Below are positions 28,358-44,806 of a stretch of DNA of 52,303 bases, in pieces. Positions within the stretch are counted from its first letter, which is position 1; each line of letters begins with the position of its first letter. The position numbers and the translations under genes were made by a program. The stretch is from Desulfobacteraceae bacterium (lineage in GTDB: Bacteria; Desulfobacterota; Desulfobacteria; Desulfobacterales; ETH-SRB1). The notes beneath the pieces were generated by a model. That model searched no databases, was not told the DNA's origin, and was given only the letters and a program-made list of their open reading frames with translations. The stretch is from assembly GCA_028571455.1 (NCBI GenBank), contig JAPVVG010000119.1:1-52303 (forward strand), in the 5' to 3' direction.

Positions 28358-28360
28358 CAT

Positions 28361-28569
28361 TCGTTCTCCTCCCTATTCATGATAAAAATTGACAATAACC
28401 CTCAGCTCTGATAGAAAAAAGAACTGAGGGGGGGTAGCCTGGTTAGATAGATATCTAACCAGGCCTGCCTCCCACCGGAAAGGCGGTCTTGCTCCTGGCT
28501 GGGGAAGCCGCCTTTCCACCCAACAAATATTATTATCACCTCCCTTGTTTCGAGTATTTTGTATCTTTT
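28361..28569 (-). promoter_or_regulatory. Structured intergenic leader before second receptor
   Basis: The 209-nt gap holds three strong hairpins on the minus strand: GGAAAGGCGG ... CCGCCTTTCC; the 28-bp palindrome GCCTGGTTAGATA-TC-TATCTAACCAGGC; and CCCTCAG ... CTGAGGG. Both outer parts (GGGAGGTGATAATA and ATCAGAGCTGAGGG) match the leader of the first receptor at 31564, so about 100 nt of palindromic sequence is inserted between them. TTAGATA/TATCTAA halves resemble the operator half-sites of the iron promoters. Confidence 0.5.
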
Positions 28570-29520
28570 TTATTCTTTATAGACAGCATCTGCCCATACC
28601 TTCAAAATTTTTGGATACTGAGTTATCGAAGAGTCCATATAGAACGGAAGGGTATAAATCGCATGGTCTCTTATGGCTGTGACCTTTGCTAATTCAGGGT
28701 GCCTCTTTAAGGCCTGTACAAGATTTTTTTGCACAGTATAGGAGTTTCCATATGTTACAATAATATCAGGATTTGCCTTTAAAACAGCCTGCCAGCTCTT
28801 AAGCGGAAAATACCCTTTATTTACTTTCGTATCCTGTTTTTTGATCAGGCTTCCCACATTTACACACCCTAGCGGCTCAAGGAAAAACCGGTCAGAATAG
28901 CCTCCCGGCGCTTCGACACGGACACCACGTTTTCCCCAACCATGCAGAATCAGAATCTTTTTATCTGCTCTGGTGGCGGGAATGGCGTTTCTAATCCTCT
29001 TGAGCGACCTTGTGTATTCCCCGGCGAGACTCATGGCCTCATCTTTCCTTCCAAGCGCTTTGCCTATTTCAAGGATAGCTCCGGGCACCCCTTTTGAAAA
29101 GTTTATGACGTGTATATCGTAGCCATATTCCTTTAAAGGTTTTAAAAATTTATCCGTCCAGTTCCAGTCTTTGTTGATGGTGACACTGCCATCCTCAATC
29201 AGGATTAACTTGACTTTATGTTTATCCGCTGTTTTGATGATTGAATCAACTGTGGCGCATCTGTAACATCCAAGCCTGGTCACAGTAGAAAGCTCTTTTT
29301 GGGTCATAGGCCAGCAGCAACGCGCACTGTAGGCAACCGGCACAGTTCCCAGACGATAGGCAACATCTGTAATCCTGTCGGATATAAATATGGCATTGAC
29401 TCTCTCACACCTGTATTCACTTCTCGCAGCAAGTGGCGTAACACAAAATGTAATAAGACCCAATATCGCCGCAAGAACTGCCACTGTTTTCAAATAAAAA
29501 CTTTTCTTCTTGATTTTCAT
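28570..29520 (-). CDS. Periplasmic substrate-binding protein (BtuF/FepB-like)
   Basis: This encodes 316 residues: signal peptide (cut near LAARS), then a type III binding-protein fold: NAIFISDRITDVAYRLGTVPVAYS, a Cys-rich loop ARCCWPMTQ ... LGCYRCATVDS, ANPDIIVTYG near the hinge, and the C-terminal AIRDHAIYTLPFYMDSS. Such proteins deliver corrinoids, heme or siderophores to ABC importers. It lies between two TonB receptors, but no cognate permease or ATPase is in the window. A C-terminal fragment of a close relative remains at 38015-38143. Confidence 0.82.
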   Translation of the reverse strand: MKIKKKSFYLKTVAVLAAILGLITFCVTPLAARSEYRCERVNAIFISDRITDVAYRLGTVPVAYSARCCWPMTQKELSTVTRLGCYRCATVDSIIKTADKHKVKLILIEDGSVTINKDWNWTDKFLKPLKEYGYDIHVINFSKGVPGAILEIGKALGRKDEAMSLAGEYTRSLKRIRNAIPATRADKKILILHGWGKRGVRVEAPGGYSDRFFLEPLGCVNVGSLIKKQDTKVNKGYFPLKSWQAVLKANPDIIVTYGNSYTVQKNLVQALKRHPELAKVTAIRDHAIYTLPFYMDSSITQYPKILKVWADAVYKE

Positions 29521-29535
29521 GTGATTGCTCCCTGT

Positions 29536-31563: not shown

Positions 31564-31700
31564 CTTAGTTCTCCTTTGTTAGGCCAGCACGGCCCATACC
31601 TGATAATTGACAATGACCCTCAGCTCTGATAAAAAAAACGAATAGTATTATCACCTCCCCTACTCTTTCCGCTCTTGATATTTCACTTTAAACTTCACAA
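31564..31700 (-). promoter_or_regulatory. Leader before first TonB receptor
   Basis: The minus strand reads GGGGAGGTGATAATACTATTC, a T-rich run, then ATCAGAGCTGAGGGTCATTG and AAAGGAG before the start. The first and third blocks recur in the leader of the second receptor. TGATAATACTATT has a short inverted symmetry (AATA-C-TATT) that could be a metalloregulator site. No terminator hairpin is seen. Confidence 0.35.
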
Positions 31701-31744
31701 CAATTAACAATTAATCAATGATAACTATACAGTCCAAAGTTCTC

Positions 31745-31850
31745 TAAAAAAGTCTTCAAAGTCCCCCTTTGAAGGGGGATTTAGGGGGATGTAATTTCGG
31801 GGAAATACTACTAAAACACCCCCCTGCCCCCCTCAAGGGGGGAATAAGTT
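31745..31850. repeat. C/G-rich CCCCCTTTGAAGGGGG repeat
   Basis: Palindromic words CCCCCTTTGAAGGGGG and CCCCCCTCAAGGGGGG lie between the TPR gene and the first receptor leader. They are similar to the tandem set at 42025-42140. No gene is visible from 31700 to 31926. Confidence 0.6.
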
Positions 31851-31926
31851 GTGGTTTAATTATTTCAGTATGTTACGAGAACTTATGACTCATGAGTGAT
31901 AACTGAACATTGATAATTGATAATTT

Positions 31927-31980
31927 CTATGGTTTTACCTCAAACGTCAAAATGGCCTGATAACTGTACTCATCATCTTG
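31927..31980 (-). pseudogene. DUF4198 C-terminal remnant
   Basis: In the frame just past the TPR gene stop, the minus strand reads QDDEYSYQAILTFEVKP then stop. This matches the terminal strand of DUF4198 proteins such as YTATLTFAVPKT at 15454. Only the last 17 residues remain, overlapping the TPR stop codon, so a DUF4198 gene probably once followed and was removed by deletion. Confidence 0.45.
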
Positions 31981-33148
31981 ACTCCTTGGAAAGTAAGGCT
32001 ACCTGTTTCAGCAATTCTTTTGCTATTTTCCGGTGTTTTGGAAAGCGAGTTGCCTTTTGAAATGCACTCCTGGCCGTCTCTTTTTTATCCATCTGCAAGG
32101 CGCAATAGCCCGTCATCAGATATGCCCTGCCATTTTTGGAGTTAAAGCGAGCGCTTTGATTAAAGGCATTATAGGCTTTATCGAAATTGCCTTGTTCGTA
32201 AAGCACCTGGCCCATAGTAAACCAGAGGCCTGATGTCGGTTTTTTCTCAAGGGCTCTGTCCAACACTTCTATAGCCTTTGCCGGCCTGTGGGCGCCGATA
32301 TAGGCTGAGGCCAGTTTATCATAAATAGCCGGGTTGTTTCCCGAGGTTAGGGCCTTTTCATAATACCCTGCCGCGCTCAAGGGCACTCCAACAGCATTAT
32401 AGAGATCCCCAAGGAGCATGATATCCTGTTTTGTTAAGAAGGTTAAATAGGAATGCACCGTGAGCGCCGCAACAGCCGGTTTGTAATCACTTTCCTGCAA
32501 ATGGAACTGTGCCAGAATCTTCCACCAGCGGGGGTCGTTTCCGTTTTTCTCCAGCAGCCTGTGGATTACCTCAAATGCCTTTTCCTTGATCTGAAGATCC
32601 ATACATACCTTTAACAATGCTTCAAGCCATTCTGTCTTTGGGGCTCCTATCTCACCTGATACGAGACGTTCTAAATGAGGCAGGGCCTTTCTCTCCTTTT
32701 TTGCCATGATATAAGAAACAGCCGCATAGTAGAGCAGGGAATGTTCCTTTTTCTCATTGACTTCATACGCTTTTAACAGGCAATTTCCGGCCTCATCATA
32801 CTGTTTCAAGTCAAAGTAAATTTTGCCCATATTTTGCCATGCCGCAGTAAAGCCCGGATACAAATTAGCAGCAGCCATGTAGTGTGGGAGGGCATCTCTG
32901 TCTTTGCCTGCCACTGCAAGTGCATTGGCTAAGGTGAATTCCACAAGATAGTGCGGCTTTTTGGGGTTCTTTTTAATAAATTTCTTAAGGCATTCTTCCG
33001 CTTTCAGGTAGTCCTTTTTCTCCATTAATTGCTGGGCCTCATAAACAACTTTTTGAACTGCCAGTGTCAATTTTGGCGCTTCACTTTCAGCCCACGCAGG
33101 GCAGCAGGAAGCTGAAAGCAGTAGAGCTGAAAGCAAGAAATTTTTCAT
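31973..33148 (-). CDS. Periplasmic TPR protein of the TonB2-type operon
   Basis: This encodes 391 residues from ATG 33148 (AAGG 8 nt upstream). Signal peptide (cut near CPAWA), then about nine TPR units such as KAEECLKKFIKKNPKKPHY and DEAGNCLLKAYEVNEK. In Vibrio- and Shewanella-like TonB2 loci a TPR protein follows tonB in just this order. It probably helps assemble or stabilise the energising complex. The 51-bp gap after tonB contains GAATTTT word repeats. Confidence 0.85.
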   Translation of the reverse strand: MKNFLLSALLLSASCCPAWAESEAPKLTLAVQKVVYEAQQLMEKKDYLKAEECLKKFIKKNPKKPHYLVEFTLANALAVAGKDRDALPHYMAAANLYPGFTAAWQNMGKIYFDLKQYDEAGNCLLKAYEVNEKKEHSLLYYAAVSYIMAKKERKALPHLERLVSGEIGAPKTEWLEALLKVCMDLQIKEKAFEVIHRLLEKNGNDPRWWKILAQFHLQESDYKPAVAALTVHSYLTFLTKQDIMLLGDLYNAVGVPLSAAGYYEKALTSGNNPAIYDKLASAYIGAHRPAKAIEVLDRALEKKPTSGLWFTMGQVLYEQGNFDKAYNAFNQSARFNSKNGRAYLMTGYCALQMDKKETARSAFQKATRFPKHRKIAKELLKQVALLSKESR

Positions 33149-33199
33149 CGTCATAGCCTTGAGTATTTGGTTTTGAATTTTGAATTTTGAATTTTAGCT

Positions 33200-33913
33200 T
33201 CACGCCCCCTCTATATCGAATTGAATCGTTGTGATTACCCAGGTAGAAACTGCATGGCCACGAACTTCTCCGGGAGAAAATCTCCATGAGGGAAGGGCCT
33301 TGAGCACACTGTCATCAAAAATCCCGGGTGGGGTTGACCTGAGTATCTTGATATTGCTCACGTAACCGTTTTCATCCACCAGGAATTTAATATCCACCTT
33401 TCCAGTGATGTTAAGTCGCCTGGCGCGGTAGGGATAGATAGGTTTCATTTTGAAAATTGCCATGGGCATCTGGTCCACTTCGCCCTGGTCATAAAAGTCT
33501 TTAAATGGAAATACAGTAGGTCCCTTGGCCGGTGGGGCTACCGGCATGCCCCCTGCGAGCTTAGGATTGATCTCAAAGCTCAGGCGGGGCATTTCCATCT
33601 TTATCTCTTGTTTCCTGAAAACCTTATGCCGCAGCCTGACCGTGGGAATAACCTTTTCAGGAGGTTTTTTCTCGGGCATCTTGTCTTCTTTCTCAGGCAC
33701 CGGCTTTTTGGGCCTTATCTCCACCAAATTTACAGAAACGATGGTTTCAAGATCGCTTTTACTCAAGTCACTCTTTACAAAATTGGGCAGGAGAGCAAAT
33801 AAAAAGATATTAATTAGCAGGGCAAGCCCCAGAGCTACAAGATTTTGAATTTTGCATTTTGCATTTTGCATTTTATCCAAAAAGGGATTTCTCTTGAAAA
33901 TCAGACAGTTCAT
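33200..33913 (-). CDS. tonB: TonB energy-transducing protein (TonB2 type)
   Basis: This encodes 237 residues from ATG 33913 (AGGAAG 7 nt upstream). Membrane anchor ALGLALLINIFLFALLP, a Lys/Pro-rich periplasmic linker (RPKKPVPEKEDKMPEKKPPE), and a C-terminal TonB domain (PIYPYRARRLNITGKVDIKFLVDENG ending STWVITTIQFDIEGA). It transfers proton-motive energy from ExbB/ExbD to the two receptors in this window. Residues about 14-24 are encoded by the AAAATGCAAAATGC word repeat found between genes, so repeat DNA has entered the coding sequence. Confidence 0.9.
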   Translation of the reverse strand: MNCLIFKRNPFLDKMQNAKCKIQNLVALGLALLINIFLFALLPNFVKSDLSKSDLETIVSVNLVEIRPKKPVPEKEDKMPEKKPPEKVIPTVRLRHKVFRKQEIKMEMPRLSFEINPKLAGGMPVAPPAKGPTVFPFKDFYDQGEVDQMPMAIFKMKPIYPYRARRLNITGKVDIKFLVDENGYVSNIKILRSTPPGIFDDSVLKALPSWRFSPGEVRGHAVSTWVITTIQFDIEGA

Positions 33914-33926
33914 ACGTAAACTTCCT

Positions 33927-34191
33927 GTAAGCGTTCACCGAACGTCGAAATTAGAAATTAGAAATTTGGCCTTCATGCTTTTGTACTGTTGATGAACGCA
34001 TTCAATTTTGGGCAGAGTTTTTCAACTATTGCTTTGTATTCTGTCTCGTTTGACTTATGCCATGTAGCACCATCTGTGCATAAAATGCACCCTACATAAC
34101 TCGTTTCATCCCTGCCTGTGCGTGCCCGCACGCAGACAGGTCTCCCAAATTTCTACTTTCCAATTTCAAGTTTCAAGCCGTGAACGGCTAC
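33927..34191. repeat. Two-copy repeat B, copy 1 (with inserted fragment)
   Basis: GTAAGCGTTCACCGAACG at 33927, then GAAATTAGAAATTAGAAATTT and CCTTCAT-CTTTTGTACTGTT, and a terminus GCCGTGAACGGCTAC at 34177-34191, are all shared with 39724-39874. The ends are roughly inverted copies of each other. This copy carries an extra segment of about 140 bp with an open reading on the minus strand. It sits between exbD and tonB. Confidence 0.55.
33973..34113 (-). pseudogene. Orphan coding fragment inside repeat B
   Basis: The minus strand reads TSYVGCILCTDGATWHKSNE, continues EYKAIVEKLCPKLNAF and stops after STKA. The composition looks protein-like, with three cysteines, but there is no start codon or ribosome site, and the other copy of the repeat lacks it. 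I do not recognise the family. Confidence 0.3.
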
Positions 34192-34198
34192 AACTTTT

Positions 34199-34621
34199 TT
34201 AACTCTCACCAGCCGATTTTGAAGCGGCCATACTAACGTTCCTGGCCCCGGCCAGGCGGCACTGGTCTATCACCTGAATAACCACGCCTGTACGGCTGGC
34301 TTTGTCAGCCACAATAACTACAGCCCCTTCTGGATTCTCTGCCAAACATCGCTCAATGTGTGCCCGGACGCTTCGAACGTCGATTTGCTTTCTTTCCAAA
34401 AAAACATGTCCGTTTGCGTCAACTCCGATAAGGATGTTTCCCTTCTCCTTGAGCGTAGCAGTTGAAGCCGTGGGACGCTGAACATCAATTCCGGTTTCCT
34501 TTACAAAGCTCGTTGTAACCATGAAGAAAATCAACAGAATAAAGACCATGTCAATAAGCGGGGCCATGTTGATCCCTTCGGTTTTGCTGCTCCGGCGGAG
34601 AGATCGACGCACGTTTATCAT
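34199..34621 (-). CDS. exbD: ExbD-type biopolymer transport protein
   Basis: This encodes 140 residues: one membrane helix (APLIDMVFILLIFFMVTTSF) with the conserved Asp (IDMVF) that carries protons, then a periplasmic domain. It forms the proton-driven stator with ExbB and TtpC for TonB. ATG 34621 directly follows the exbB stop; GAGGT lies 8 nt upstream. Confidence 0.92.
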   Translation of the reverse strand: MINVRRSLRRSSKTEGINMAPLIDMVFILLIFFMVTTSFVKETGIDVQRPTASTATLKEKGNILIGVDANGHVFLERKQIDVRSVRAHIERCLAENPEGAVVIVADKASRTGVVIQVIDQCRLAGARNVSMAASKSAGES

Positions 34622-35212
34622 TTATACATACCTCTTCAGAGTCATAACTACCTCATTCAAACGATTTTTCAAGCGGTTGGAGCGGCGAATAAGAAAAGCG
34701 CTCATAAAAAGTCCGGGAATGGCCACAAGCAGTCCGCTCTGGGTGGTTATCAGGGCCTCGGAAATGCCTCCTGCCATGGCCTTGGCATTGCCTGTGCCAA
34801 AGATAGCTATCACATTAAAAGTAGTCATCATGCCGGTCACCGTTCCTAAAAGGCCGAATAACGGGGCCACAGCGGCCAGCACAGCGATAACAGAGAGATA
34901 GCGTCTGAGAGGAGACATCTCTCGCATTGCGCATTGATCAAGTATGTCTCGATCCAGCTTCTTGTTGCCTGTGCGCTCTTTGAGAAAACTCGCTACAACC
35001 CGGGCTCGAAGTCCATTTGAAGTCTCTGGCAAAGGGGCGCCGGAAAGTATCTTCACTGCCTCTTTCATATCCACATCATCTCTATCTATCCGACGGAAAT
35101 AAAGCGCCCGTTCGACTATAAGCGCCCACATCCAGAGGGAGATCAGGATGAGTGGGATCATCACCGGCCCACCCGGGCGGAGGTATTCATATGCATCTGC
35201 AATAATGTCCAT
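34622..35212 (-). CDS. exbB: ExbB/TolQ-type proton channel protein
   Basis: This encodes 196 residues from ATG 35212 (GGAG upstream). The longer ORF would begin with repeat-encoded SEVGGQRSEV codons, so it is rejected. Three membrane helices: PVMIPLILISLWMWALIVERALYF, then VIAVLAAVAPLFGLLGTVTGMM and TTQSGLLVAIPGLFMSAFL, matching ExbB/TolQ. It is one of two ExbB-like proteins in the operon, as in TonB2 systems. Confidence 0.92.
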   Translation of the reverse strand: MDIIADAYEYLRPGGPVMIPLILISLWMWALIVERALYFRRIDRDDVDMKEAVKILSGAPLPETSNGLRARVVASFLKERTGNKKLDRDILDQCAMREMSPLRRYLSVIAVLAAVAPLFGLLGTVTGMMTTFNVIAIFGTGNAKAMAGGISEALITTQSGLLVAIPGLFMSAFLIRRSNRLKNRLNEVVMTLKRYV

Positions 35213-35279
35213 TTTGAACTTAGCTCCGCAATTGGTCGAGTAGTCGAGTGGTTGATTCGTTTCAACGACCTTACAATTA

Positions 35280-35360
35280 ACATTGACCTCTGACTTCCGA
35301 CTTCCGACTTCTGATCTCTGACCTCCGACCTCTGACCTCTGCCCTCCGACCTCTGACATC
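35280..35360. repeat. CTGACTTCCGACTTC word repeat
   Basis: About ten imperfect CTGACCTCYGAC words lie between the ttpC-like and exbB genes, translated by chance as repeated SEVGGQR. They are of the same kind as at 1248-1346 and 17860-17936. Confidence 0.8.
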
Positions 35361-35366
35361 TGATCT

Positions 35367-36806
35367 CTACTCGATAAAGGTTATTTCTCTGTGAATAATG
35401 TTGCTCAAGCCTACAGCCTTTTCCTCCATATCCCCGACTATGTGCTCCACGCGCCGGCTCAAAAAAGTGTGCATCAACATTATCGGAATAGCCATAGCCA
35501 GACCTAACATGGTGGTGACCAGGGCCTCAGAAATACCGCCGGACATCATACGGGGATCACCGGTGCCATACAGGGTAATGACGTGAAAGGTGCTGATCAT
35601 GCCGGTCACCGTGCCCAAAAGCCCTAACAAAGGAGCAATCGCCCCCATAATGTTAAGTATAGGCAAAAACCGCTCCAGCCGGGGAAGCTCTTTTAAGATT
35701 GCCTCCTGCAGCACACTCTCCAGGGTCTCCCTTTCTTCGGCCCTGGCGCCCAGTCCTGCTTTCAAGACATTATAGACAGGCCGTCCTTTTTTGTCCTTTG
35801 CTATGTCATCACACTCTTTCCATTTTCCTTCCAGAGCCAGTTTATTGACTTTCCCCATAACCCGGTCGGTATTGGCGTGAACGCCTTTCAAAAAAATAAT
35901 TCGCTCTCCTGCTATGATAAGAGCAAAGAGACCAATGGCTAAAATAGGCCAGACTATGGGTCCGCCATTTTTGACCTGATCTATTAGGGTAGATTTATGC
36001 GTGATCTGTCTGAGGGCTGCTCCCCCGGAAAAATCGAGGATGACATCCTCTGTCTTGCCATGCGTATATTTTTTGAGATTCCGTCTAATAGACCATGAGG
36101 GAAGGGCGGATAGAGCAAAGAGTTGATGGCTGTTCTCTGAATAGCGTAAAAATCCTGTCTCATTACCGGTTGTATAAGCAGCGGTAAATTTCCCGATAGT
36201 CAAAATATCTCCGGTTTGCTCCATCCCTGAACGGTCAACAAATGACCCCTTGCGTATAACCACCTCGCCGGAAAGGGCCATTTCCTGAAAGAAAAGATCG
36301 GTTATGATTTTAAAATCATCTATCCCGGGAAAGCGGTCTTTATTCAGGATCGGTTTGAGCGGATTCAGACGTTCAGGAAAGCGTGCTGTCAATTGAGACT
36401 GTCTTAAGATTGTTTCAAGATCCCGGGCAACCACCCGCACTGTGCCGGAGAGCTCCCGCATGCCCATCTCATCATCTGATTGTTGATGAGTTAGCTTGAT
36501 CTCCTTTTCTCTTAGCTTTTTAAACTCATCCTGTATGACCTCAATATCAAAGTTTAACTTCTTTACTTCAGCTTCCATCCGGGCAATCTCTTTTTCAACA
36601 GATGCGCGGTCTTTTAGAATTCGCTCTTTACTCTCTCTGTCTTCAGCCAAGGCAGCCGCATACTCGGCCCTTGCTTTTTTAGAGGCAGCCCGCATGTCAT
36701 CTCCATAGGCCGAGACTGCCAAAAGCAGGATCAATATCAGTACCAGCCAAAGCCCCATGAGCATAATGTGCTGTTTTTCAGTCTTGTTTCGCTTGGAGTT
36801 GATCAT
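35367..36806 (-). CDS. ttpC: TtpC-like MotA/TolQ/ExbB protein with periplasmic N-terminus
   Basis: This encodes 479 residues. N-terminal helix or signal (IMLMGLWLVLILILLLAVSAYG), a long coiled coil (about residues 40-115), a soluble periplasmic segment, then an ExbB-like core: PILAIGLFALIIAGERIIFL, ILNIMGAIAPLLGLLGTVTG and TTMLGLAMAIPIMLMHTFL. This architecture is that of TtpC, the extra component required by Vibrio TonB2 systems. The start has only a weak ribosome site. It follows the DUF3450 gene and precedes exbB. Confidence 0.85.
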   Translation of the reverse strand: MINSKRNKTEKQHIMLMGLWLVLILILLLAVSAYGDDMRAASKKARAEYAAALAEDRESKERILKDRASVEKEIARMEAEVKKLNFDIEVIQDEFKKLREKEIKLTHQQSDDEMGMRELSGTVRVVARDLETILRQSQLTARFPERLNPLKPILNKDRFPGIDDFKIITDLFFQEMALSGEVVIRKGSFVDRSGMEQTGDILTIGKFTAAYTTGNETGFLRYSENSHQLFALSALPSWSIRRNLKKYTHGKTEDVILDFSGGAALRQITHKSTLIDQVKNGGPIVWPILAIGLFALIIAGERIIFLKGVHANTDRVMGKVNKLALEGKWKECDDIAKDKKGRPVYNVLKAGLGARAEERETLESVLQEAILKELPRLERFLPILNIMGAIAPLLGLLGTVTGMISTFHVITLYGTGDPRMMSGGISEALVTTMLGLAMAIPIMLMHTFLSRRVEHIVGDMEEKAVGLSNIIHREITFIE

Positions 36807-36879
36807 AAAGATGGAAGTTCCTATACTGTTTTGAATTTTTTATTTTGGTCATTTGTATTTGTTTAGAATTTAGTCCCTG

Positions 36880-37662
36880 TTATGGGACGATCCTTCCTAT
36901 AGGGAGCCTGACCAGATCGATAGTCCGCTCGTGACGGGCCATGTCCACGGCATTATTTATCTCTCGACGATATCTGGAAGAAAGAGATACCCATCTTCCT
37001 GCTGCTCGATCATAATGGCCCACCATCTTGCCATCCGGAGTCTGACAAAAAAGAGACAACCGGCCAAGCCTCAGGATATCCATCAGCACTGATTGACCAT
37101 TCAGATCAATGGTATCCTGATAAACCTCTACGGTGCGGCCGTATTCGGCCTCTATCTGAAGGGCTTCCATGATTCTTCGGTACTTTTCAGCAGGCGATTT
37201 ATCCGGCTGGGTTAGAGTCTCTTTGATTGAGTCAAGCCGAGCAGCTCGTTCATTTAACAAAAAGGGGGAATCCTTTTTGATTAACTCCTCAAGTTGCGCT
37301 ACTACCGATTCAAGGTAAGATTGCAACTCCTCCCTGATCCGGGCCGATTCTCTGATTTTTCGCTCAAACTCTGCAAGCCGAGCCTTTTGGCTGCTAAGAG
37401 CCCTTTCGGTTTTGAGTTTGAGTTTTTCAAGATAGTCTTGATTTGCTTTCAAAGACCGGTAGCGGGCCATGAGCTCCGCCTTCTTTCCTGCCCATGTATC
37501 CTCTTTTTTCTGGGTTTGCTGGCGGATCTCAATTGCTTGTGTAACCTTTTTTTGAAGCTGATCCGCCTCTGTCCCGGCCCAGGACTGCCCATGCATAACA
37601 AGGAGTAAAAATAAAAAAACCACAGTAAAGTAAGCTGTTTTATGAAATCGGCTATAACTCAT
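36880..37662 (-). CDS. DUF3450 periplasmic coiled-coil protein
   Basis: This encodes 260 residues from ATG 37662 (GAGGAG 6 nt upstream; the earlier ATG would lie inside the leader terminator region). Signal peptide (cut near GQSWA), then coiled coil (residues about 25-130) and a C-terminal DUF3450 domain. DUF3450 genes regularly head TtpC-ExbB-ExbD-TonB operons. Being first gene after leader RNA 3, it marks the start of the TonB operon. Confidence 0.85.
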   Translation of the reverse strand: MSYSRFHKTAYFTVVFLFLLLVMHGQSWAGTEADQLQKKVTQAIEIRQQTQKKEDTWAGKKAELMARYRSLKANQDYLEKLKLKTERALSSQKARLAEFERKIRESARIREELQSYLESVVAQLEELIKKDSPFLLNERAARLDSIKETLTQPDKSPAEKYRRIMEALQIEAEYGRTVEVYQDTIDLNGQSVLMDILRLGRLSLFCQTPDGKMVGHYDRAAGRWVSLSSRYRREINNAVDMARHERTIDLVRLPIGRIVP

Positions 37663-37678
37663 TGACTTCTCCTCAAAC

Positions 37679-37768
37679 AAAAAAAGCGCAACTTAGATGT
37701 TTTCTGCAATCCAAGTTACGCCTTCACTTTCTCCCGCTTTTCGGTCGGAAAACCGTAAGACATCCCTT
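37679..37768 (-). ncRNA. Leader RNA copy 3 (candidate riboswitch), ahead of TonB operon
   Basis: Minus strand: GGGAUGUC (37766-37759), UUACG, a small hairpin (UUUUC-CGACC-GAAAA), AAAGUGAAGGCGUAACUUGG, then CUAAGUUGCGC and a run of U residues just before the DUF3450 ribosome site. The terminator arms GCGUAACUUGGAU and AUCUAAGUUGCGC pair over most of their length. UUACG can pair with CGUAA instead. The conserved blocks are identical to copy 2. Confidence 0.68.
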
Positions 37769-38014: not shown

Positions 38015-38143
38015 TCAGTTCGACAAGGCGTCGGTCCACTGCCGCAGAATAGCCGGATACTCCATCACGCTCGAATCCGCATAGAACGGCAGGTTATAGA
38101 TAGCCAGATTTTTAATGGCCGGTACTTGGGCTTTGGTTTTCAT
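38015..38143 (-). pseudogene. C-terminal fragment of a periplasmic binding protein
   Basis: Forty-two codons (VPAIKNLAIYNLPFYADSS, then MEYPAILRQWTDALSN) match the C-terminus of the binding protein at 28570 (AIRDHAIYTLPFYMDSSITQYP). The rest of the gene is gone. Its first ATG overlaps the stop of the 38140 gene as ATGA, showing a deletion junction rather than an intact gene. Confidence 0.6.
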
Positions 38144-38532
38144 AAATCAGCGCAATAAACCTTCAGTTCATCAAAAGGTTTACTCTCAAGAAAAGTTAAA
38201 CCGCCTCTTTTGGCGTCACTTTCAATCATTTCATGAGTAAAGAGTGTTATTACCTGGCGTTGAGAGCACAGGATATAATAATCAGATTTAAAAAGGCTGA
38301 TTTTATACAATTGTTTTATCTTCTCCTTGCCATTATATCCTTCGGCTCTAATTTCGACATCCCGGCCCTGGTCTCTTACTTTATTTAGCGCCCTGGCAAT
38401 GACAGTGCATATTTCCTTGGATTTTCTTCTTTTACGTTTTACTGCCGGATCGCTGACTCTGGCTTTATAGGAATTAACAGTATGAGCGCCGATATGCCAA
38501 TCACTTAGAACGCGCTTGCCGACTTTTGCCAT
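38140..38532 (-). CDS. Hypothetical basic protein after moxR
   Basis: This encodes 130 residues from ATG 38532 (GGAGG 4 nt upstream). The N-terminal third is very basic (DPAVKRKRRKSKEICTVIAR); the rest is mixed alpha/beta with single cysteines. I do not recognise a family. It starts 19 bp after the MoxR gene and is probably its co-transcribed partner. Confidence 0.5.
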   Translation of the reverse strand: MAKVGKRVLSDWHIGAHTVNSYKARVSDPAVKRKRRKSKEICTVIARALNKVRDQGRDVEIRAEGYNGKEKIKQLYKISLFKSDYYILCSQRQVITLFTHEMIESDAKRGGLTFLESKPFDELKVYCADL

Positions 38533-38551
38533 GCTACCTCCTTTACAGGTG

Positions 38552-39697
38552 TCACACAAGCTCAAAAATCTCTTTCACTACCTGCTTTTTTGCGGTCAGT
38601 CTTTTAATAATATCGGTTCTTCCGGTTGCAGCTTTTTCTTCAACAAGGATCAGTTTTAATCCAAGGGGCACAATCTCTTTATGCCATCTTATCATGTCGA
38701 TTAAAATCGATTCAAAATTATTGATCAAACGTTCCATGAATCCGTTCAGCCTGAACCTGTTTTCCCTGAAATATTTCAACAAACAGGCCACACATGAACT
38801 TAAAAGAGCATAAGACTCGATTTTAGATAAACTCTCAATTTCGACTGTTTCATGTTTATTAAGTATCTTTTTTGCATTCCATTTTGCGTACAGTTCATGA
38901 TACTCAATAAACCTTGTGGTTGCTTCGGTTCCCACATGGCCGGACAAAATGGTAAACATGGTTTCATCTGTCAGCGAGTCGCCAAAAGAATCAAAACTTA
39001 TCGAGGCATAAGTCCAGGATCTTGGCGAAGCCCAGGCATCTGATTCGAGCGGTGTCCCGACAAGACATTCAGGATAATGCCGCAAGAAAGTAATAATATC
39101 GCTGCGGATGCGGTTTTTGACCGCAAAGTCTTCCATCCACTGGTCAAAGTCAGCATGAATATTAATGAAAAATAACCGGTTTGCAACCGGAGCAAGGATC
39201 TCTTGAAAACCGGCCTTGTCATTCCCCCTGTTTCCGGCAAGAATGAGCGCCACATTATCCGGCAGCTTATGGTCGTGAACAGACCTGTATGTTAAAAGCT
39301 GAAACATATAAGCCTGAATCTGGCGGCTGCACAGATGGGCATCGTCTAAAAACATCACAACAGGGGAATTATTATTTTTTGGGGCAATATTGAGTTTGTC
39401 AAAATTAAAGATTTCAGGTCTTGACCACCTGATATATTCTGAGTTTATATCTTCATTCTTACCGATACCGGGAAGCCCTGTAATCTGCTCAAGCATAAGA
39501 GTGGCCATATAGACCACCCTTAAACCCCAGCCCCGGTCATGGCATATCTGGCGAATTACCTCGGACTTACCGATGCCCGGAGAACCGGACAGCCAGGGAA
39601 TGGAGGTTAAATGCCCGTTTCTGCCGGCATCAAGCTGAAGCCTTACGCTTCGGATCACAAAATCTGCCGCTTTATTTAAATTAAGCCTTGTTTCCAT
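38552..39697 (-). CDS. MoxR-type AAA+ ATPase
   Basis: This encodes 381 residues. Walker A GSPGIGKS (residues 38-45), Walker B MFLDDA (115-120), sensor-1-like LILAGNRG, and a helical C-terminal lid. MoxR ATPases act as chaperones that insert metals or remodel targets together with a VWA-domain partner; that partner is encoded just upstream (39884-41323). GGGAG precedes ATG 39697. A 151-bp repeat separates the two genes. Confidence 0.82.
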   Translation of the reverse strand: METRLNLNKAADFVIRSVRLQLDAGRNGHLTSIPWLSGSPGIGKSEVIRQICHDRGWGLRVVYMATLMLEQITGLPGIGKNEDINSEYIRWSRPEIFNFDKLNIAPKNNNSPVVMFLDDAHLCSRQIQAYMFQLLTYRSVHDHKLPDNVALILAGNRGNDKAGFQEILAPVANRLFFINIHADFDQWMEDFAVKNRIRSDIITFLRHYPECLVGTPLESDAWASPRSWTYASISFDSFGDSLTDETMFTILSGHVGTEATTRFIEYHELYAKWNAKKILNKHETVEIESLSKIESYALLSSCVACLLKYFRENRFRLNGFMERLINNFESILIDMIRWHKEIVPLGLKLILVEEKAATGRTDIIKRLTAKKQVVKEIFELV

Positions 39698-39723
39698 TGA
39701 AGTCTCCCTGTGTTTGTTAAGTT

Positions 39724-39874
39724 GTAAGCGTTCACGGAACGTTGAAATTAGAAATTAGAAATTTGGCCTTCATACTTTTGTACTGTTCCTCCCAATTTCT
39801 AATTTCTAATTTCTATTTTAATCTCTCCCTAATTTCTATTTTCCAATTTCGAGTTTCAAGCCGTTAACGGCTAC
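39724..39874. repeat. Two-copy repeat B, copy 2
   Basis: GTAAGCGTTCACGGAACG, GAAATTAGAAATTAGAAATTT, CTTTTGTACTGTT, several AATTTCTA words, and GCCGTTAACGGCTAC at the end parallel the copy at 33927-34191, without its coding insert. It lies between the VWA gene and moxR. Confidence 0.6.
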
Positions 39875-39883
39875 GTTTCAGGT

Positions 39884-41323
39884 TTAATAAAAATTAATCA
39901 CTTTGCCGATAATTCCTTTTGGCAATGATTTGTTACGGGTCAGGTAGATTCTCGGCATCCAGGGAGCCAGAAGCTTTTGCACATTTCGGATATCTGAATC
40001 CATATCTGTGATGCCGATATAGACCGATGTCTCTTCTCCGTTGCCTGTTTTTATATATTGCATCACCTTTTCAAAAACTTCTTTATGGGACGTGCCCCCG
40101 CCGTGTCTTCTTTTAAGCAAAGCTTTTTTTTCCTCATTTCCGATTGATTCATACTCTCTGGTCCAATTGACATGAGTATCATGCTTGATGACATATATTT
40201 TTTTGTACATGTCTTTTGCCTGGCATATTATATCAATAGACATGGACACATCATGGTCACCAACCGACGCGGATTCGTCAATGCTTACAATCACAGTTCC
40301 AGGCTTTGGCTCATCAGCATAATCAGGCAGATAGGGCAGGTAGTTTTTATTGACAAGCCATGAAAGCCTCGGTTTTCCCCATGTCAGATCTGCCGACCTG
40401 TCGAGAGCGCGGTTTAATGAATCTTTCAGAATCCGTTTCCAGTCGGCTTTAACACCGGTAAGTGACTCTAAAAATCGTTTTGAAGCTGTGGTGCCATGTC
40501 CTCTTAATATCTCCTCTAACATATGACGGGCAAGGCTGGTATGACGGGCCATGTTTTTTTTAAATTTTTGCTTTTCCTCAATTAAATCAGGAACAACTTT
40601 TAATTTTCCGTTAACATCTTTTTGTATCCCTTTTTCCTTATCAGCATCTTCATCTTCTTCGCCGAACTTATCTTTTTTACTTGAGTTAAGGCTTCCTGCA
40701 TTTAAATTCACTTCCACATCGTTTCGCTTTAACACATTATTACGAAGCCTTATGCGGGACTGAATAACCCGGGGCATGCCGCCTGTCTGATTACTGCTTT
40801 TTTTATTTTTGCTTTCCGCATCAGACAGCATTTCTTTTGTTATTCTCGAGACAACTTCAGAAGTTTTGTTTATTTCGTCATAGATGTCCTCTTCCAGCAT
40901 ATCCCGGTATCGCGGATCATAAAGAAAAGGCTCCTCGCCCAAAAACATTTTGTCAGGATCGTATTTAACAAGGTCTTTTTTTAAAAAGTCGTTAAGATAA
41001 GCAATAAGGGAGTCGGCCATATAATCGGTTGCCATGCCCCACAGGGCAGGGTCTTTTGATTTGAGCCTCTGATCATGAAGAAAAAGGGTGTGTATTGCTT
41101 CATGAAGCAGCAGAAATGTAACCGACTCTTCCATGTCTCTTGTCTGTATAAACCGGCTGGATCTGTTGATGTAAATGGTATCTGCGTTTTTAAATGCCGG
41201 AATATCTTCCGGCAGATCAAGAAAACAGATGTCATGGTTTAACAATTCAAGACCGATGGGAAGGGCATTCGGATCTCTTAACATCCTCGAAATAATCCGT
41301 TGTATGAGTTGGGTTTCGTTCAT
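39884..41323 (-). CDS. VWA-like / putative metallopeptidase protein (DUF2201 type)
   Basis: This encodes 479 residues from ATG 41323, which overlaps the preceding stop as ATGA. The N-terminal metallopeptidase-like domain has HEAIH (residues 74-78, HExxH). A charged linker follows, then a C-terminal VWA-like domain with a MIDAS pattern: SIDESAS (DxSxS), GGGTSH (Thr) and TDMDSD (Asp). Such proteins pair with MoxR ATPases as metal-dependent adaptors. Coupling to the Trp-repeat protein upstream is direct. Confidence 0.78.
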   Translation of the reverse strand: MNETQLIQRIISRMLRDPNALPIGLELLNHDICFLDLPEDIPAFKNADTIYINRSSRFIQTRDMEESVTFLLLHEAIHTLFLHDQRLKSKDPALWGMATDYMADSLIAYLNDFLKKDLVKYDPDKMFLGEEPFLYDPRYRDMLEEDIYDEINKTSEVVSRITKEMLSDAESKNKKSSNQTGGMPRVIQSRIRLRNNVLKRNDVEVNLNAGSLNSSKKDKFGEEDEDADKEKGIQKDVNGKLKVVPDLIEEKQKFKKNMARHTSLARHMLEEILRGHGTTASKRFLESLTGVKADWKRILKDSLNRALDRSADLTWGKPRLSWLVNKNYLPYLPDYADEPKPGTVIVSIDESASVGDHDVSMSIDIICQAKDMYKKIYVIKHDTHVNWTREYESIGNEEKKALLKRRHGGGTSHKEVFEKVMQYIKTGNGEETSVYIGITDMDSDIRNVQKLLAPWMPRIYLTRNKSLPKGIIGKVINFY

Positions 41324-41949
41324 TTTGACAGCCTGTATATAAGATAATCCTGCGCCCACATATCCTTATACCTCATGCAATTTGCCTTAAGAGAACTGCA
41401 CAGTTTATCGGTCAACTGAAAATTCTGCGAACTGTACCATATTGGAAAATAATCGCCGCACTTCTCAATAAGCATTTGTTCAACCGGCAAATTATTAAAT
41501 GTTTTGCCCCAGGGAAACTTTTTTTCATCCCACCATGTTTCAAATAAATTGGAAAATTCCATAATCAGATACGGAGTATGTGTTTCCCACGGAAAACCGG
41601 ACGGCTTCCACCATATATGAAAAAAAGCGCCGCAATATTTAATCAACAATCTTGTTGCTCTCGAATTCCAGTTATATTTATCAGGCTCCCACCACAAAGA
41701 AAAATACTGCGGGCAGTGATGGGCAAGGGCTGCGCACGATTGCCAATTGTATCGCTCTGGATCCCACCATATTTCGAAACAGTTGCTGCAATATCTCGCT
41801 AAACAACCGCTGAAATTCCAGTTGAAATGCTCGGGGTTCCACCATTTAGCAAAATCGGAAACCGCGCGAAGGTCAGAGCGTAAAGCCGGGCAGTTAGGCA
41901 AGATAAGGTCATGCCCAAAGGAATTAATCCGTGCCGGTAGATGACACAT
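41320..41949 (-). CDS. Trp-Trp repeat protein
   Basis: This encodes 209 residues, with no signal peptide. From residue 33 there are six repeats of about 25-27 residues (one longer): F-x-x-W-W-x-P-x-x-[YF]-[NP]-W, then a helix ending [YH]-C-x-x-[YF]. WW pairs fall at 36, 61, 87, 113 and 139, and WY at 171. It would form a solenoid with regularly spaced aromatics and cysteines. I know of no described family with this repeat. The overlap with the VWA gene implies a shared function. Confidence 0.7.
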   Translation of the reverse strand: MCHLPARINSFGHDLILPNCPALRSDLRAVSDFAKWWNPEHFNWNFSGCLARYCSNCFEIWWDPERYNWQSCAALAHHCPQYFSLWWEPDKYNWNSRATRLLIKYCGAFFHIWWKPSGFPWETHTPYLIMEFSNLFETWWDEKKFPWGKTFNNLPVEQMLIEKCGDYFPIWYSSQNFQLTDKLCSSLKANCMRYKDMWAQDYLIYRLSK

Positions 41950-42024: not shown

Positions 42025-42140
42025 CAGGAAATCCCCCTAAATCCCCCTTTTCTAAAGGGGGATTTTCAACCATTCCCCCTTTTCTAAAGGGGGACTTTCA
42101 ACCATTCCCCCTTTTCTAAAGGGGGTTAGGGGGATTTTAC
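42025..42140. repeat. Tandem CCCCCTTTTCTAAAGGGGG hairpin repeats
   Basis: Three tandem units of CCCCCTTTTCTAAAGGGGG, separated by ATTTTCAACCATT-like spacers, end in GGGGGTTAGGGGGATTTT. Each unit is a palindrome. The rest of the 320-bp gap (41950-42268) shows no gene. Confidence 0.8.
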
Positions 42141-42268: not shown

Positions 42269-43519
42269 TTAATGGATGCTTGCGCCTTTTTGAGATTCCA
42301 GAAGCGCTTGTGAAATAGTGCCCAGACCGGAACCGGCCAGCATCTGAACAGATTTCCTGTGCTTTTTACCCATTTTCTTGACTACCGAACAGGCGTTATG
42401 GCTGTTTATGTTAACCGGGCATAGGACAATATCAGCCCGCCTTATCCGGTTCTCAAGCGCTCTTTTGCCTCCCTTCATGTGACCGTCATAGTGTTCAAAT
42501 ATGCCACCATTCTCTTCAATCAACTGACGGTAAAGGGATTCCATCCTGTCTATACCACCTACAATCAAGATCCGTTTCCGGCAAAGATCAAAGGACGGGC
42601 AAGTCTCATCACAACGATTCAGTGCGGAGATCCGGATAACAATCCTTTCCATCTCCTCTTTCAAATGGTCGTTCATCTCGCGCTGGCTCTCAAATTTTGA
42701 CAGTAACTTATTGTTTTTGCTTTGGAGGGTCTCCTGTCCTCGTTGGTAATTCCATATTTCTCCTGTCAGGTTCGCCAGTTCATCATGTAATTGCTGGTTT
42801 TCAGCCTCAAGCTCGAGCATCCTGGTATTTTCCCGCGGGTTTGACAGCTCCTTTTCAATCGCAAGTTTGTCTTTTTCAAGAAAGGCATATTGTCTGCGCA
42901 ATTCCGCCTGTTCCCTTTCCAATCTTTCATTTTCCTTTTTTAATGTCCTCCTTGTCTGGATTGACTCTTTAAACTTTTTATTCAGCTTTAGATTCACCTC
43001 TCGTTGAGAGGACAGACGCTGCCGTAATTTTATGTTGTGCCCGGCATTCAGATACAATTGCATATGAATGTCTCCAAAAATTGAGCCGATATCCTTTTCC
43101 TTCAGATCTGTCCGCGTGGCGGCAACCCACAGAAAACCGGCTATTTCACCCTTTTGAAAGTGTGTTTTCCAGGCATCTAAAAAGAGAGACCTGTCAAGGC
43201 CGGAAAATTTCAATATCTCATGTTTGAATTTCCTGTGCAGGTATGCATCTACACGCGTAGAAAGCCTGTTATTATCTGAGAGGCTGCGCACAAATATCCC
43301 GTGAATCTCATGAGCGCTCCGATTCTTGATGGAATATCCCACTTTTTTTAAAATCCTCTTCTGTTCTTCCAGGCTCAAACATGTGCCTACAACCGGACAC
43401 TTGAAATGGCTGTGAATCATCCAGGCCCGGCGCCGTGAAATGTTTTCAGCACACTCTGCCTTAACCGGTTCAACCGGCAAAAAAGGATTGCCATCCTGGT
43501 TCAAATCTATGTGACTCAT
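42269..43519 (-). CDS. DUF2325 protein with coiled coil and Cys motifs
   Basis: This encodes 416 residues from ATG 43519 (AGGGAG 7 nt upstream); ATG 43543 is an alternative. The N-terminal region has CPVVGTC; a long coiled coil (about residues 180-310) follows, then CDETCPSFDLCRKR directly before the C-terminal DUF2325 domain (ILIVGGIDRMESLYRQLIEE ... ADIVLCPVNINSHNAC). C-x3-C-x5-C is suited to an Fe-S cluster or metal. It follows leader RNA 4 and lies in the dtxR-feoA region, so a role in iron sensing or storage is inferred. Confidence 0.7.
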   Translation of the reverse strand: MSHIDLNQDGNPFLPVEPVKAECAENISRRRAWMIHSHFKCPVVGTCLSLEEQKRILKKVGYSIKNRSAHEIHGIFVRSLSDNNRLSTRVDAYLHRKFKHEILKFSGLDRSLFLDAWKTHFQKGEIAGFLWVAATRTDLKEKDIGSIFGDIHMQLYLNAGHNIKLRQRLSSQREVNLKLNKKFKESIQTRRTLKKENERLEREQAELRRQYAFLEKDKLAIEKELSNPRENTRMLELEAENQQLHDELANLTGEIWNYQRGQETLQSKNNKLLSKFESQREMNDHLKEEMERIVIRISALNRCDETCPSFDLCRKRILIVGGIDRMESLYRQLIEENGGIFEHYDGHMKGGKRALENRIRRADIVLCPVNINSHNACSVVKKMGKKHRKSVQMLAGSGLGTISQALLESQKGASIH

Positions 43520-43590
43520 AATATTACTCCCTGGTATTTCCATGCAAAAACCCCCTTTCTTTCCTCTTTCTTTACTTCCCTCCGGATAAA

Positions 43591-43674
43591 TAAAAAGGCG
43601 CAACCCAATGTTTTTTCCTCATCGAGTTACGCCTTCACTTTCCCGCCTGAGAGCGGGCCCGCATGACATCCCTG
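43591..43674 (-). ncRNA. Leader RNA copy 4 (candidate riboswitch), ahead of DUF2325 gene
   Basis: Minus strand: GGGAUGUC (43672-43665), AUGCG in place of UUACG, hairpin CCCGC-UCUCAG-GCGGG, AAAGUGAAGGCGUAAC, then GGGUUGCGCC and five U residues. It begins a few nucleotides after the stop of the 97-residue gene, so in this copy the leader works within an operon, or from a weak promoter inside that gene. Confidence 0.65.
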
Positions 43675-44028: not shown

Positions 44029-44244
44029 TTATTCTACGATGATCTTTTCCGCCATTCCTCGGCCAATGGCCAGCCTGGAATCCTTTACCGCAATCATAAC
44101 AGGTCCTGAACCGCTCCGGTTTAAGATTTTAAGAGTTACCCCTGGCACAAGACCTATGCTATAAAGCTTTGACCTGACACCTCTCCCCCCTCTTATATCT
44201 ATAAGTGTAACCTCTTTCCCCTGATCAATCGTGCTCAGTACCAT
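44029..44244 (-). CDS. FeoA-domain protein linked to DtxR
   Basis: This encodes 71 residues, a single FeoA/SH3-like domain (VTLIDIRGGRGVRSKLYSIG, LVPGVTLKILNRSG, RLAIGRGMAEKIIV). It starts 4 bp after the dtxR stop. Some DtxR-family repressors carry this domain as a C-terminal fusion; here it is separate and may act with the repressor or with FeoB. Confidence 0.88.
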   Translation of the reverse strand: MVLSTIDQGKEVTLIDIRGGRGVRSKLYSIGLVPGVTLKILNRSGSGPVMIAVKDSRLAIGRGMAEKIIVE

Positions 44245-44248
44245 TATT

Positions 44249-44806
44249 TTATTTTTCTTCCCCCACCTTTTGCATAGTTTTTATCCTGACCTTGAACCCA
44301 CCTGCAAATTCTTTCATCCTGGCTAAACATTTATCCGGTTCCTGACCATGAAGCCGGTATTCATCAAAATATTTCAGCCAGTCCAACCCTACCCTCGGGC
44401 AAAATTGAATAAATTCCATAAACTCTATAAACCTGTCGAGCGTTGAGGCGCTGACAGCATGTTCCATTTTGCAGGCCTCTTCATCGGCTGTTTTAAAATC
44501 TATATTTAACATATCTGTCAAAAAGCTTCGTAAAGTATGATGTCTCCGATGTATTTCTTTGCCGACATCAAGCCCTTTTTTTGTCAGTTCCAGGTACTCA
44601 TATTTTTCGTAATCGATTAATTCCCTCTTGCTAAGGGTCTTGAGCATATTTGTAACCGTGGGCATCTTTACCCCAAGTCTTTTGGCAATATCCTTTACCC
44701 TGACAACCCTTTTTTCCTTACCCAGATTAAAAATAGCCTCCAGATAATCTTCCATAGCCGGTGTCAGAGGCTTTTTCAAGATATCATCTTTATTTTGCAT
44801 AAACAC
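44249..44806 (-). CDS. DtxR-family iron-dependent transcriptional repressor
   Basis: This encodes 185 residues. Winged helix: VRVKDIAKRLGVKMPTVTNM (recognition helix about residues 44-58), then dimer and metal domain. ACKMEHAVS places C112, E115 and H116 in the DtxR pattern (Cys-x2-Glu-His), which favours Fe2+ over the Glu-type site of MntR. Its own promoter has the same -35/17/-10 layout as the leader-linked operons, so it is the best candidate regulator of those sites. Confidence 0.88.
   Translation of the reverse strand: MFMQNKDDILKKPLTPAMEDYLEAIFNLGKEKRVVRVKDIAKRLGVKMPTVTNMLKTLSKRELIDYEKYEYLELTKKGLDVGKEIHRRHHTLRSFLTDMLNIDFKTADEEACKMEHAVSASTLDRFIEFMEFIQFCPRVGLDWLKYFDEYRLHGQEPDKCLARMKEFAGGFKVRIKTMQKVGEEK

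What the first reader, a model, noticed from the sequence alone, without database searches (positions are those of the whole stretch)
38140..41949. MoxR ATPase + VWA/metallopeptidase + Trp-Trp repeat protein: possible undescribed ternary system
MoxR-VWA pairs act as metal-dependent remodelling chaperones, and vWA-MoxR pairs with a variable third gene have been proposed as conflict systems. Here the third gene is a WW-repeat protein overlapping the VWA gene by ATGA, with a basic hypothetical protein at the end. The VWA protein also has an HExxH site, so it could cut as well as bind.
Basis: partly seen in the sequence, partly recalled or inferred. Interest (0 to 1): 0.58.

Follow-up and report, generated by a model that had tools for sequence, protein, structure and literature searches.

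The report
Phage-shared protein-remodelling operon in syntrophic bacteria
Three neighbouring genes that probably build an ATP-driven protein-remodelling (and perhaps protein-cutting) machine are shared between large phages and a few sulfate-reducing bacteria, most of them known partners of methane-eating archaea, where they often sit beside iron-uptake genes.

Summary
On the minus strand lie a Trp-Trp repeat protein (WWR, 41320-41949), an HExxH/VWA protein (VWA, 39884-41323, joined by ATGA) and a MoxR-like AAA+ ATPase (MOX, 38552-39697). The basic ORF is not a stable part.

The trio is a conserved unit: all 8 confirmed WWR loci of a scan of 84,980 species genomes carry VWA next, and 7 carry MOX (the eighth contig ends). 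Six of these MAGs are listed ANME-partner sulfate reducers (Seep-SRB1a, 1g, 2). The third gene does not vary, HExxH is conserved, and selection is purifying. FeoA lies within 5 kb in 5 of 8 genomes (one a remnant). Defence-like neighbours are few and not recurrent.

Homologues of all three share IMG/VR tailed-phage contigs. SRB and phage ATPases form one clade (100/100). So this is probably a phage-related, domesticated machine, a AAA+ ring with a VWA/zincin co-chaperone and an alpha-solenoid adaptor, that moved between SRB lineages. Its client is unknown; iron-related is my best guess. The MoxR plus metallopeptidase-VWA pair is described in jumbo phages; in my few searches I did not find the WW-solenoid partner or its capture by SRB in print.

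The parts
41320..41949 (-). WWR: Trp-Trp repeat protein, 209 aa, predicted alpha-solenoid of helical hairpins; first gene of the unit
   Evidence: orthologues next to VWA at 8 of 8 bacterial loci
39884..41323 (-). VWA: N-terminal DUF2201 zincin-like domain (HEAIH at residues 74-78) plus C-terminal VWA domain with MIDAS DESAS (residues 349-353)
   Evidence: start ATG 41323 overlaps the WWR stop (ATGA)
38552..39697 (-). MOX: MoxR-like AAA+ ATPase, Walker A GSPGIGKS, Walker B FLDDAH, sensor 1 AGNR, Arg finger PVANR
38140..38565 (-). basic ORF: accessory at most; among the loci matched only at the remnant locus of G007 (91%) and, on the other strand, at G008 (75%)
42269..43603 (-). DUF2325 protein just upstream; the only DUF2325 match in its genome; within 5 kb of the cassette or its remnant in 5 of 6 genomes that have one
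44032..44244 (-). FeoA domain gene, with a DtxR-type repressor upstream (44249-44806): iron context

Best explanation
The three genes encode one machine. MOX forms the AAA+ motor ring; the VWA protein is its co-chaperone, whose MIDAS metal grips a client and whose HExxH domain may cut it; the WW-repeat alpha-solenoid is the client-binding adaptor, coupled in translation to the VWA gene. The same trio is carried by large tailed phages, where its place among baseplate-like and endolysin-like genes suggests work on virion (tail) proteins. In sulfate reducers it is a domesticated, selected unit that has moved between lineages and often sits next to ferrous-iron genes, so the client there is most likely an iron-handling or iron-containing protein. 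Shown: gene set, order, motifs, clade, selection, linkage. Inferred: complex formation, adaptor role, proteolysis, client, and the direction phage to SRB.
For: All 8 WWR loci of the genome scan carry VWA and 7 carry MOX, the eighth contig ending in VWA. Tight spacing at several loci. dN/dS 0.08-0.32 in every pair where dS was finite. HExxH and DxSxS in 9 of 9 SRB rows and 4 of 4 WW phages. Phages: of 8 IMG/VR records found by WWR, 6 have MOX and the same 6 have VWA; a further record found by MOX (L116) has all three. MOX tree: 9 SRB + 3 phage rows 100/100 on a branch of 2.96. These 12 share Walker B LDD[AI]H; of the 17 other rows 12 matched with DE and 5 matched no pattern. FeoA within 5 kb in 5 of 8 genomes, DUF2325 in 5 of 6. 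Precedents: MoxR/VWA NorQD serves non-haem iron insertion (PMC9976466 passages, PMC13036017 abstract); MoxR plus metallopeptidase-vWA in jumbo phages proposed for virion assembly (PMC7824862 passages).
Against: No complex was predicted or measured. The VWA model is poor outside its C-terminal domain (mean pLDDT 51). The WWR fold has no distinctive solved match (best Foldseek E 0.7; best VIA Z 7.1, in the range of common arrangements). At G014 and G079 no FeoA is near, and I see no iron gene among the UBA3076 neighbours (my reading). The FeoA odds treat loci as independent, but G000/G007 share a locus and G008/G014 share upstream genes. Phage-to-SRB direction is weak: the branch that nests SRB among phages has 65.4/58 in the concatenated tree, though 95/88 and 96/93 in the midpoint-rooted VWA tree, which warns of long branches. 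WWR is not seen in 8 of the 14 MOX-clade phage loci in the stretch held, and one of the 14 (L128) shows no VWA in 9.9 kb upstream. WWR without MOX exists in phages (G194, G577).
Confidence: 0.5

Rival explanations
1. Phage-derived anti-phage device: the SRB keep the trio because it poisons assembly of the related phages (decoy or dominant-negative), or blocks superinfection.
For: Phages with the same trio exist; distribution is patchy (0 of 6 other same-genus genomes, 4 of 8 in genus g3); two loci decayed by internal deletion. Some defence-like neighbours: a PDC-S05 match and a Type I restriction-type match side by side at G056, a caspase-like protein at Meg22, two PemK-like toxins, by my reading both at FWG171.
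Against: These neighbours differ from locus to locus; the other PADLOC matches that I could place are UvrA, a sigma-54 activator and a ClpB-like ATPase; WWR shows purifying, not diversifying, change; linkage to feo is not expected.
Confidence: 0.2
2. A retained virion or contractile-injection assembly chaperone: the SRB use it on phage-tail-like particles (eCIS), which are reported in some syntrophic SRB.
For: Phage copies sit by baseplate-like and endolysin-like genes (my reading of the translations); PMC7824862 proposes virion assembly for the pair; PMC10553843 reports eCIS in some syntrophic SRB.
Against: Among the PHROG families listed for 69 SRB neighbours (first 25 of 32) there is no sheath, portal, capsid or terminase; an endolysin, a lytic tail protein, a lytic tail fibre and an M13 protein IV name each occur in one member. 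I could not search the genomes for eCIS (cap reached).
Confidence: 0.15
3. A MoxR-vWA conflict (VMAP-like) ternary system.
For: MoxR-like ATPase plus VWA plus a third gene.
Against: Third gene constant and without a match to any library family; metallopeptidase domain N-terminal of the VWA.
Confidence: 0.05
4. Passive hitch-hiking: a phage fragment that inserts preferentially near feo/DUF2325 loci and is slowly lost, without a host function.
For: Deletion remnants in G007 and G010; patchy distribution.
Against: dN/dS 0.08-0.32 and intact motifs across separated SRB lineages.
Confidence: 0.1

Closest known systems
MoxR AAA+ plus metallopeptidase-vWA pair of group 2.2 jumbo phages (PMC7824862, passages)
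   Same: same pair: MoxR AAA+ ATPase and a vWA protein with an N-terminal metallopeptidase domain, in tailed phages
   Different: no WW-repeat partner in the passages I saw; the trio ATPases form a separate clade on a long branch from the 11 comparison phage rows placed here; I did not place the paper's own examples
N4 gp24/gp25 core genes of N4-like phages (PMC4193335, passages)
   Same: ATPase and vWFA core genes; HExxH and MIDAS present in 9 of 9 comparison phage rows, N4-like ones among them
   Different: distant (about 21-29% identity in the rows listed); no WWR found in the phage collection
NorQD, CbbQO, RavA-ViaA (bacterial MoxR-VWA chaperones)
   Same: motor plus VWA co-chaperone logic; NorQD acts in non-haem iron insertion
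   Different: no HExxH domain or WW-solenoid known to me in these (recalled); client unknown here
MoxR-vWA ternary conflict systems (VMAP etc.; PMC7159879, passages)
   Same: three-gene layout around a MoxR-vWA pair
   Different: different third component; no variable effector domains seen here

Membership tests
MoxR AAA+ ATPases (Pfam AAA_3) | match to AAA_3 (PF07726) | tested here: not met
   in its own genome AAA_3 hits only contigs C61 and C160, not C119; one search gives generic AAA models only
MoxR AAA+ ATPases (Pfam AAA_3) | AAA+ motifs: Walker A, Walker B, sensor 1, arginine finger | tested here: met
   GSPGIGKS, FLDDAH (Asp in place of the usual Glu), AGNR, PVANR; motif names are recalled
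Phage ATPase family phrog_1297 / VWA family phrog_1314 | profile match over most of the protein | tested here: met
   1.7e-51 (residues 32-336) and 2.8e-33 (11-490)
DUF2201 metallopeptidase-VWA proteins | PF13203 domain with HExxH | tested here: met
   (52.2 bits against 23.2)
DUF2201 metallopeptidase-VWA proteins | PF09967 VWA-like domain above cut-off | tested here: not met
   21.2 bits against 26.4; a VWA fold is nevertheless supported by Foldseek (E 7.8e-5) and by MIDAS DESAS
DUF2201 metallopeptidase-VWA proteins | proteolytic activity | not testable with these tools
   needs an assay
VMAP-type MoxR-vWA ternary conflict systems | third component VMAP, iSTAND, FtsH or beta-propeller | tested here: not met
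   WWR matches no Pfam, PHROG, PADLOC or NCBIfam family and is predicted all-helical repeats
VMAP-type MoxR-vWA ternary conflict systems | variable effector domains | tested here: not met
   same proteins at the cassette loci
Metal-inserting MoxR/VWA chaperones (NorQD-like) | a metalloenzyme client matured by the pair | not testable with these tools
   only the FeoA/DUF2325 linkage points that way

The most novel reading that the evidence does not exclude
A phage virion-assembly chaperone-protease with a Trp-Trp solenoid adaptor was captured by sulfate reducers and carried, probably by viruses, between clades that independently became partners of ANME archaea, where it was re-aimed at an iron-related client that matters for the syntrophic life.
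Probability: 0.25. Interest if true: 0.8.

Novelty: new variant of a known kind. Interest (0 to 1): 0.6.

Why it matters
PMC10553843 (passages) infers many horizontal transfers in ANME-partner bacteria and names a viral conduit, or eCIS, as a possible route. This unit is shared by phages and by SRB of three partner clades, with a tree that rejects common descent of the four Seep-SRB1a copies, so it is a concrete test case. It also adds a solenoid partner to a widespread phage MoxR/metallopeptidase-VWA pair (N4 core genes 24/25, given as 'unknown' and 'vWFA domain' in PMC4193335), which makes that pair easier to attack experimentally.

Tried and rejected
Defence island: PADLOC scan of 69 neighbour proteins (within 8 kb, short contigs) gave 19 families, 18 of them in one member each. 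Placed by a second scan of ten: Type I restriction-type and PDC-S05 matches side by side at G056, caspase at Meg22, sigma-54 activator at UBA3076, ClpB-like ATPase at G014; UvrA at G079. Pfam adds two PemK-like toxins, which PADLOC did not match in the two FWG171 proteins that I read as PemK-like. I call this no recurrent defence context, not proof of none. Cassette inside a prophage: under the rivals. Composition as a sign of recent import: trio GC 0.41-0.43 is like the window's 0.436, phage contigs 0.25-0.38: no signal. WWR in the named-phage collection: none. IMG/VR scans with the window's own WWR or VWA and with A3 found nothing; scans with A1, A6 and A8 did. Ferrosome (fez) cluster at L032: suggested by P-type ATPases and HMA_2 domains, partly below cut-off, and by my recollection; the key paper is not held, so left open. 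Solved-structure relatives of WWR: none distinctive; HEAT-like and PUF solenoids at Z 5-7, giant-virus DUF4116 at E 0.84; absence there does not show a new fold. Literature: DUF2325 with FeoA, 0 papers; WW repeat/solenoid/MoxR, 1 unrelated paper; DUF2201, 4 papers (listing only). 'Not found in print' rests (listings) and on passages of PMC10553843, PMC7824862 and PMC7159879 only.

Rows dropped: in the VWA tree the two SRB rows cut by contig ends or N runs (RS_16_34, FWG171). From the 69 neighbour ORFs I left out seven that looked spurious and added one FeoA and six window proteins (again 69). AU tests were run on the MOX tree only, after the tree had been seen; the Seep-SRB1a group comes from published taxonomy. 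FeoA and DUF2325 positions for one search were copied by hand, neighbouring FeoA domains merged into one locus.
Full report
WHAT IS THERE. The first, WWR, matches no family in Pfam, PHROGs, PADLOC or NCBIfam. It is a repeat protein with Trp-Trp or Trp-Tyr every 25-32 residues, predicted by AlphaFold2 (10-row alignment, mean pLDDT 85.9, 161 of 209 residues at 90 or more) as a chain of helical hairpins, an alpha-solenoid; residues 1-29 are below 50. Structure searches found only generic solenoids. The second gene begins at ATG 41323, in the ATGA overlap with the WWR stop, not at the GTG of the ORF list. It has a DUF2201_N putative-metallopeptidase domain with HEAIH and a C-terminal VWA domain with MIDAS DESAS; only the C-terminal domain was modelled with confidence. 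The third is a MoxR-like AAA+ ATPase with complete motifs but Walker B LDDAH. Its best families are phage ones (phrog_1297; the VWA protein phrog_1314).

CONSERVATION AND LINKAGE. Of 192 relatives searched with WWR (own genome included), 13 matched at E<=0.01: the window and six others over most of the protein (G008, G010, G014, G015, G056, G079), a remnant in G007, a contig-end piece in G151, and four weak matches (G099, G112, G121, G145; E 7e-4 to 8e-3) that I did not follow up. Searched with VWA, 11 matched at E<=0.001: the window, the same six, and four distant ones (G036, G051, G160, G184). The six carry the cassette genes in the same order, G056 split over two contigs. A scan of genome contigs (84,980 species) with the WWR alignment gave 66 pattern matches and 8 confirmed loci, all with VWA downstream and 7 with MOX (the eighth contig ends). 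In a phylum-wide draw of 395 genomes only the window's own matched (VWA E<=1e-6; WWR E<=1e-3). The six other genomes of the window's genus lack it; 4 of the 8 genomes of genus g3 have it. The basic ORF matched only at G007 and, on the other strand, G008 among the loci.

WHO CARRIES IT. Six of the 8 named MAGs stand in Table 1 of PMC10553843 (passages): Seep-SRB1a (JAJSZT, JABZFQ, JAJSZO, JAJSZP), Seep-SRB1g (MAXM) and Seep-SRB2 (DFBQ, another class). JAFDKF and JAGMBW gave no match in that paper's text. The table says MAXM is strain C00003104 while the record title says C00003106. This placing is inference.

PHAGES. IMG/VR scans by WWR found 8 records: G192, G193, G573-G575 (same ATPase score, probably one virus), G576, G577 and G194. 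Six of the 8 have MOX and the same six have VWA. G194 has neither; G577 has no MOX and no VWA in the part held. A scan by MOX gave 14 loci of perhaps 8 distinct viruses: VWA lies next to MOX in 12 and 2.3 kb away in one (L127); L128, whose ATPase runs to the contig end, shows none in 9.9 kb upstream. WWR lies within the held stretch in 2 (L115, L116; L116 is a new record) and elsewhere on the contig in 4 more. By my reading of the translations the contigs carry sheath, baseplate-like, tape-measure-like, terminase and endolysin-like genes. WWR of G193 and G576 share the C-terminal 'YK[DN]IW' motif with bacterial ones. The pair without a known WWR is widespread: VWA relatives in 304 and MOX relatives in 774 of 50,697 phage records (E<=1 and E<=1e-3), Schitoviridae and Vequintavirinae among them; it is N4 core genes 24/25 (PMC4193335 passages).

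HISTORY. MOX tree, 29 rows: SRB 9 + three WW phages form one clade 100/100 on a branch of 2.96, apart from 11 other phage rows, 5 bacterial rows and the WW phage G192. VWA tree, 23 rows: the corresponding clade 100/99, SRB (7 rows) one clade 100/100, nested among the phages at 95/88 and 96/93 if the root lies outside (midpoint root, long-branch warnings in both trees). Concatenated tree, 22 rows: the clade 100/100, SRB one clade 100/100, five phages one clade 97.8/96, but the branch that would nest SRB among phages only 65.4/58. In the MOX tree the SRB are not one clade, but one clade is not rejected (AU p 0.268), while the four Seep-SRB1a rows as one clade are rejected (AU p 6.6e-14): FWG171 goes with Seep-SRB2 (100/100). 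The window goes with Seep-SRB1g rather than with Seep-SRB1a of its own family (VWA 100/99; concatenated 99.8/100; MOX only 80/73). So the unit moved between SRB lineages; phage origin is likely, not proven. dN/dS is 0.08-0.32 in all pairs with finite dS; two of the 19 pairs were saturated and some others have dS above 1.5, where the method is rough.

NEIGHBOURHOOD. In 8 genomes searched, FeoA is within 5 kb of the cassette (or its remnant) in 5 (G000, G007, G008, G015, G056), and within 13 kb in G010 too; G014 and G079 have none near. With 1-4 FeoA loci per genome the chance of 5 of 8 is about 4e-9, or 3e-7 for 4 of 7 without G007; shared ancestry makes these odds too strong. DUF2325 has one match in 6 of 8 genomes, within 5 kb in 5 of those 6. 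P-type ATPases, HMA_2 domains, a Fur-family gene, NicO and CbiM also occur among neighbours, as do UvrA, type II secretion and two-component genes with no metal link. Defence-like neighbours are few and not recurrent.

LOSS. In G007, on a 1.33-Mb contig, the locus syntenic with the window keeps only a piece around WWR residues 23-53 joined to MOX about 304-381, then the basic ORF: a deletion of about 3.0 kb with a short shared TGTTT at the join. G010 carries, besides its full cassette, a second remnant a few kb from a region syntenic with the window's TonB cluster.

MECHANISM. Motor ring (MOX), co-chaperone with metal-dependent grip and possible protease (VWA), solenoid adaptor (WWR). The logic is that of NorQD, where the VWA MIDAS is proposed to bind the client and ATP hydrolysis to remodel it for iron insertion (PMC9976466 passages, PMC13036017 abstract). 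For phages, virion assembly with peptide processing has been proposed for the pair (PMC7824862). For SRB I commit, with modest confidence (about 0.35 within the machine hypothesis), to an iron-related client. Complex formation, cutting and client are all inferred.

VERDICT. Real, conserved, selected, phage-related, and rare; a new variant of the known MoxR/VWA machines with a third partner family that I did not find described. The conflict-system reading is not supported.

Noticed in passing
L116:12138-15538; L055:4425-7870; L105:5073-6068: Arrays of small paralogue-like genes of about 90-125 aa, many ending like 'LFKIEHDIA', stand upstream of WWR in three of the phages; about 11 in a row in two of them, 3 in the third.
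   Followed up: no
L056, L097, L054: Large phage contigs with runs of WWR genes: 10, 8 and 4 ORFs matched in these stretches; the records of L056 and L097 show no MOX.
   Followed up: partly
phage records: The DUF2201-type metallopeptidase-VWA protein is labelled 'HNH endonuclease' in many phage records, an apparent annotation error.
   Followed up: partly
L038:5779-6513 and L037:16-530: Deletion remnants of the cassette in G007 and G010.
   Followed up: yes
window 26504-37680: TonB-dependent receptor, periplasmic binding protein, TonB, MotA/ExbB-type and DUF3450 genes: further metal or cofactor uptake next to the cassette.
   Followed up: partly
L032:4691-12000: Two P-type ATPases and HMA_2-like proteins near the G010 cassette; recalls ferrosome-like clusters, untested.
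   Followed up: no
L035:2-1004 (G056:C42): Two adjacent defence-like genes (PDC-S05 and Type I restriction-type matches) about 2.3 kb from the MOX gene.
   Followed up: partly
window 42042-42137: Three 32-nt tandem copies with CCCCCTTT...AAAGGGGG inverted arms upstream of WWR.
   Followed up: no
L031, L033, L034, L046, L081: A 260-300 aa helix-turn-helix-like protein stands upstream of WWR or beside DUF2325 in several genomes.
   Followed up: no
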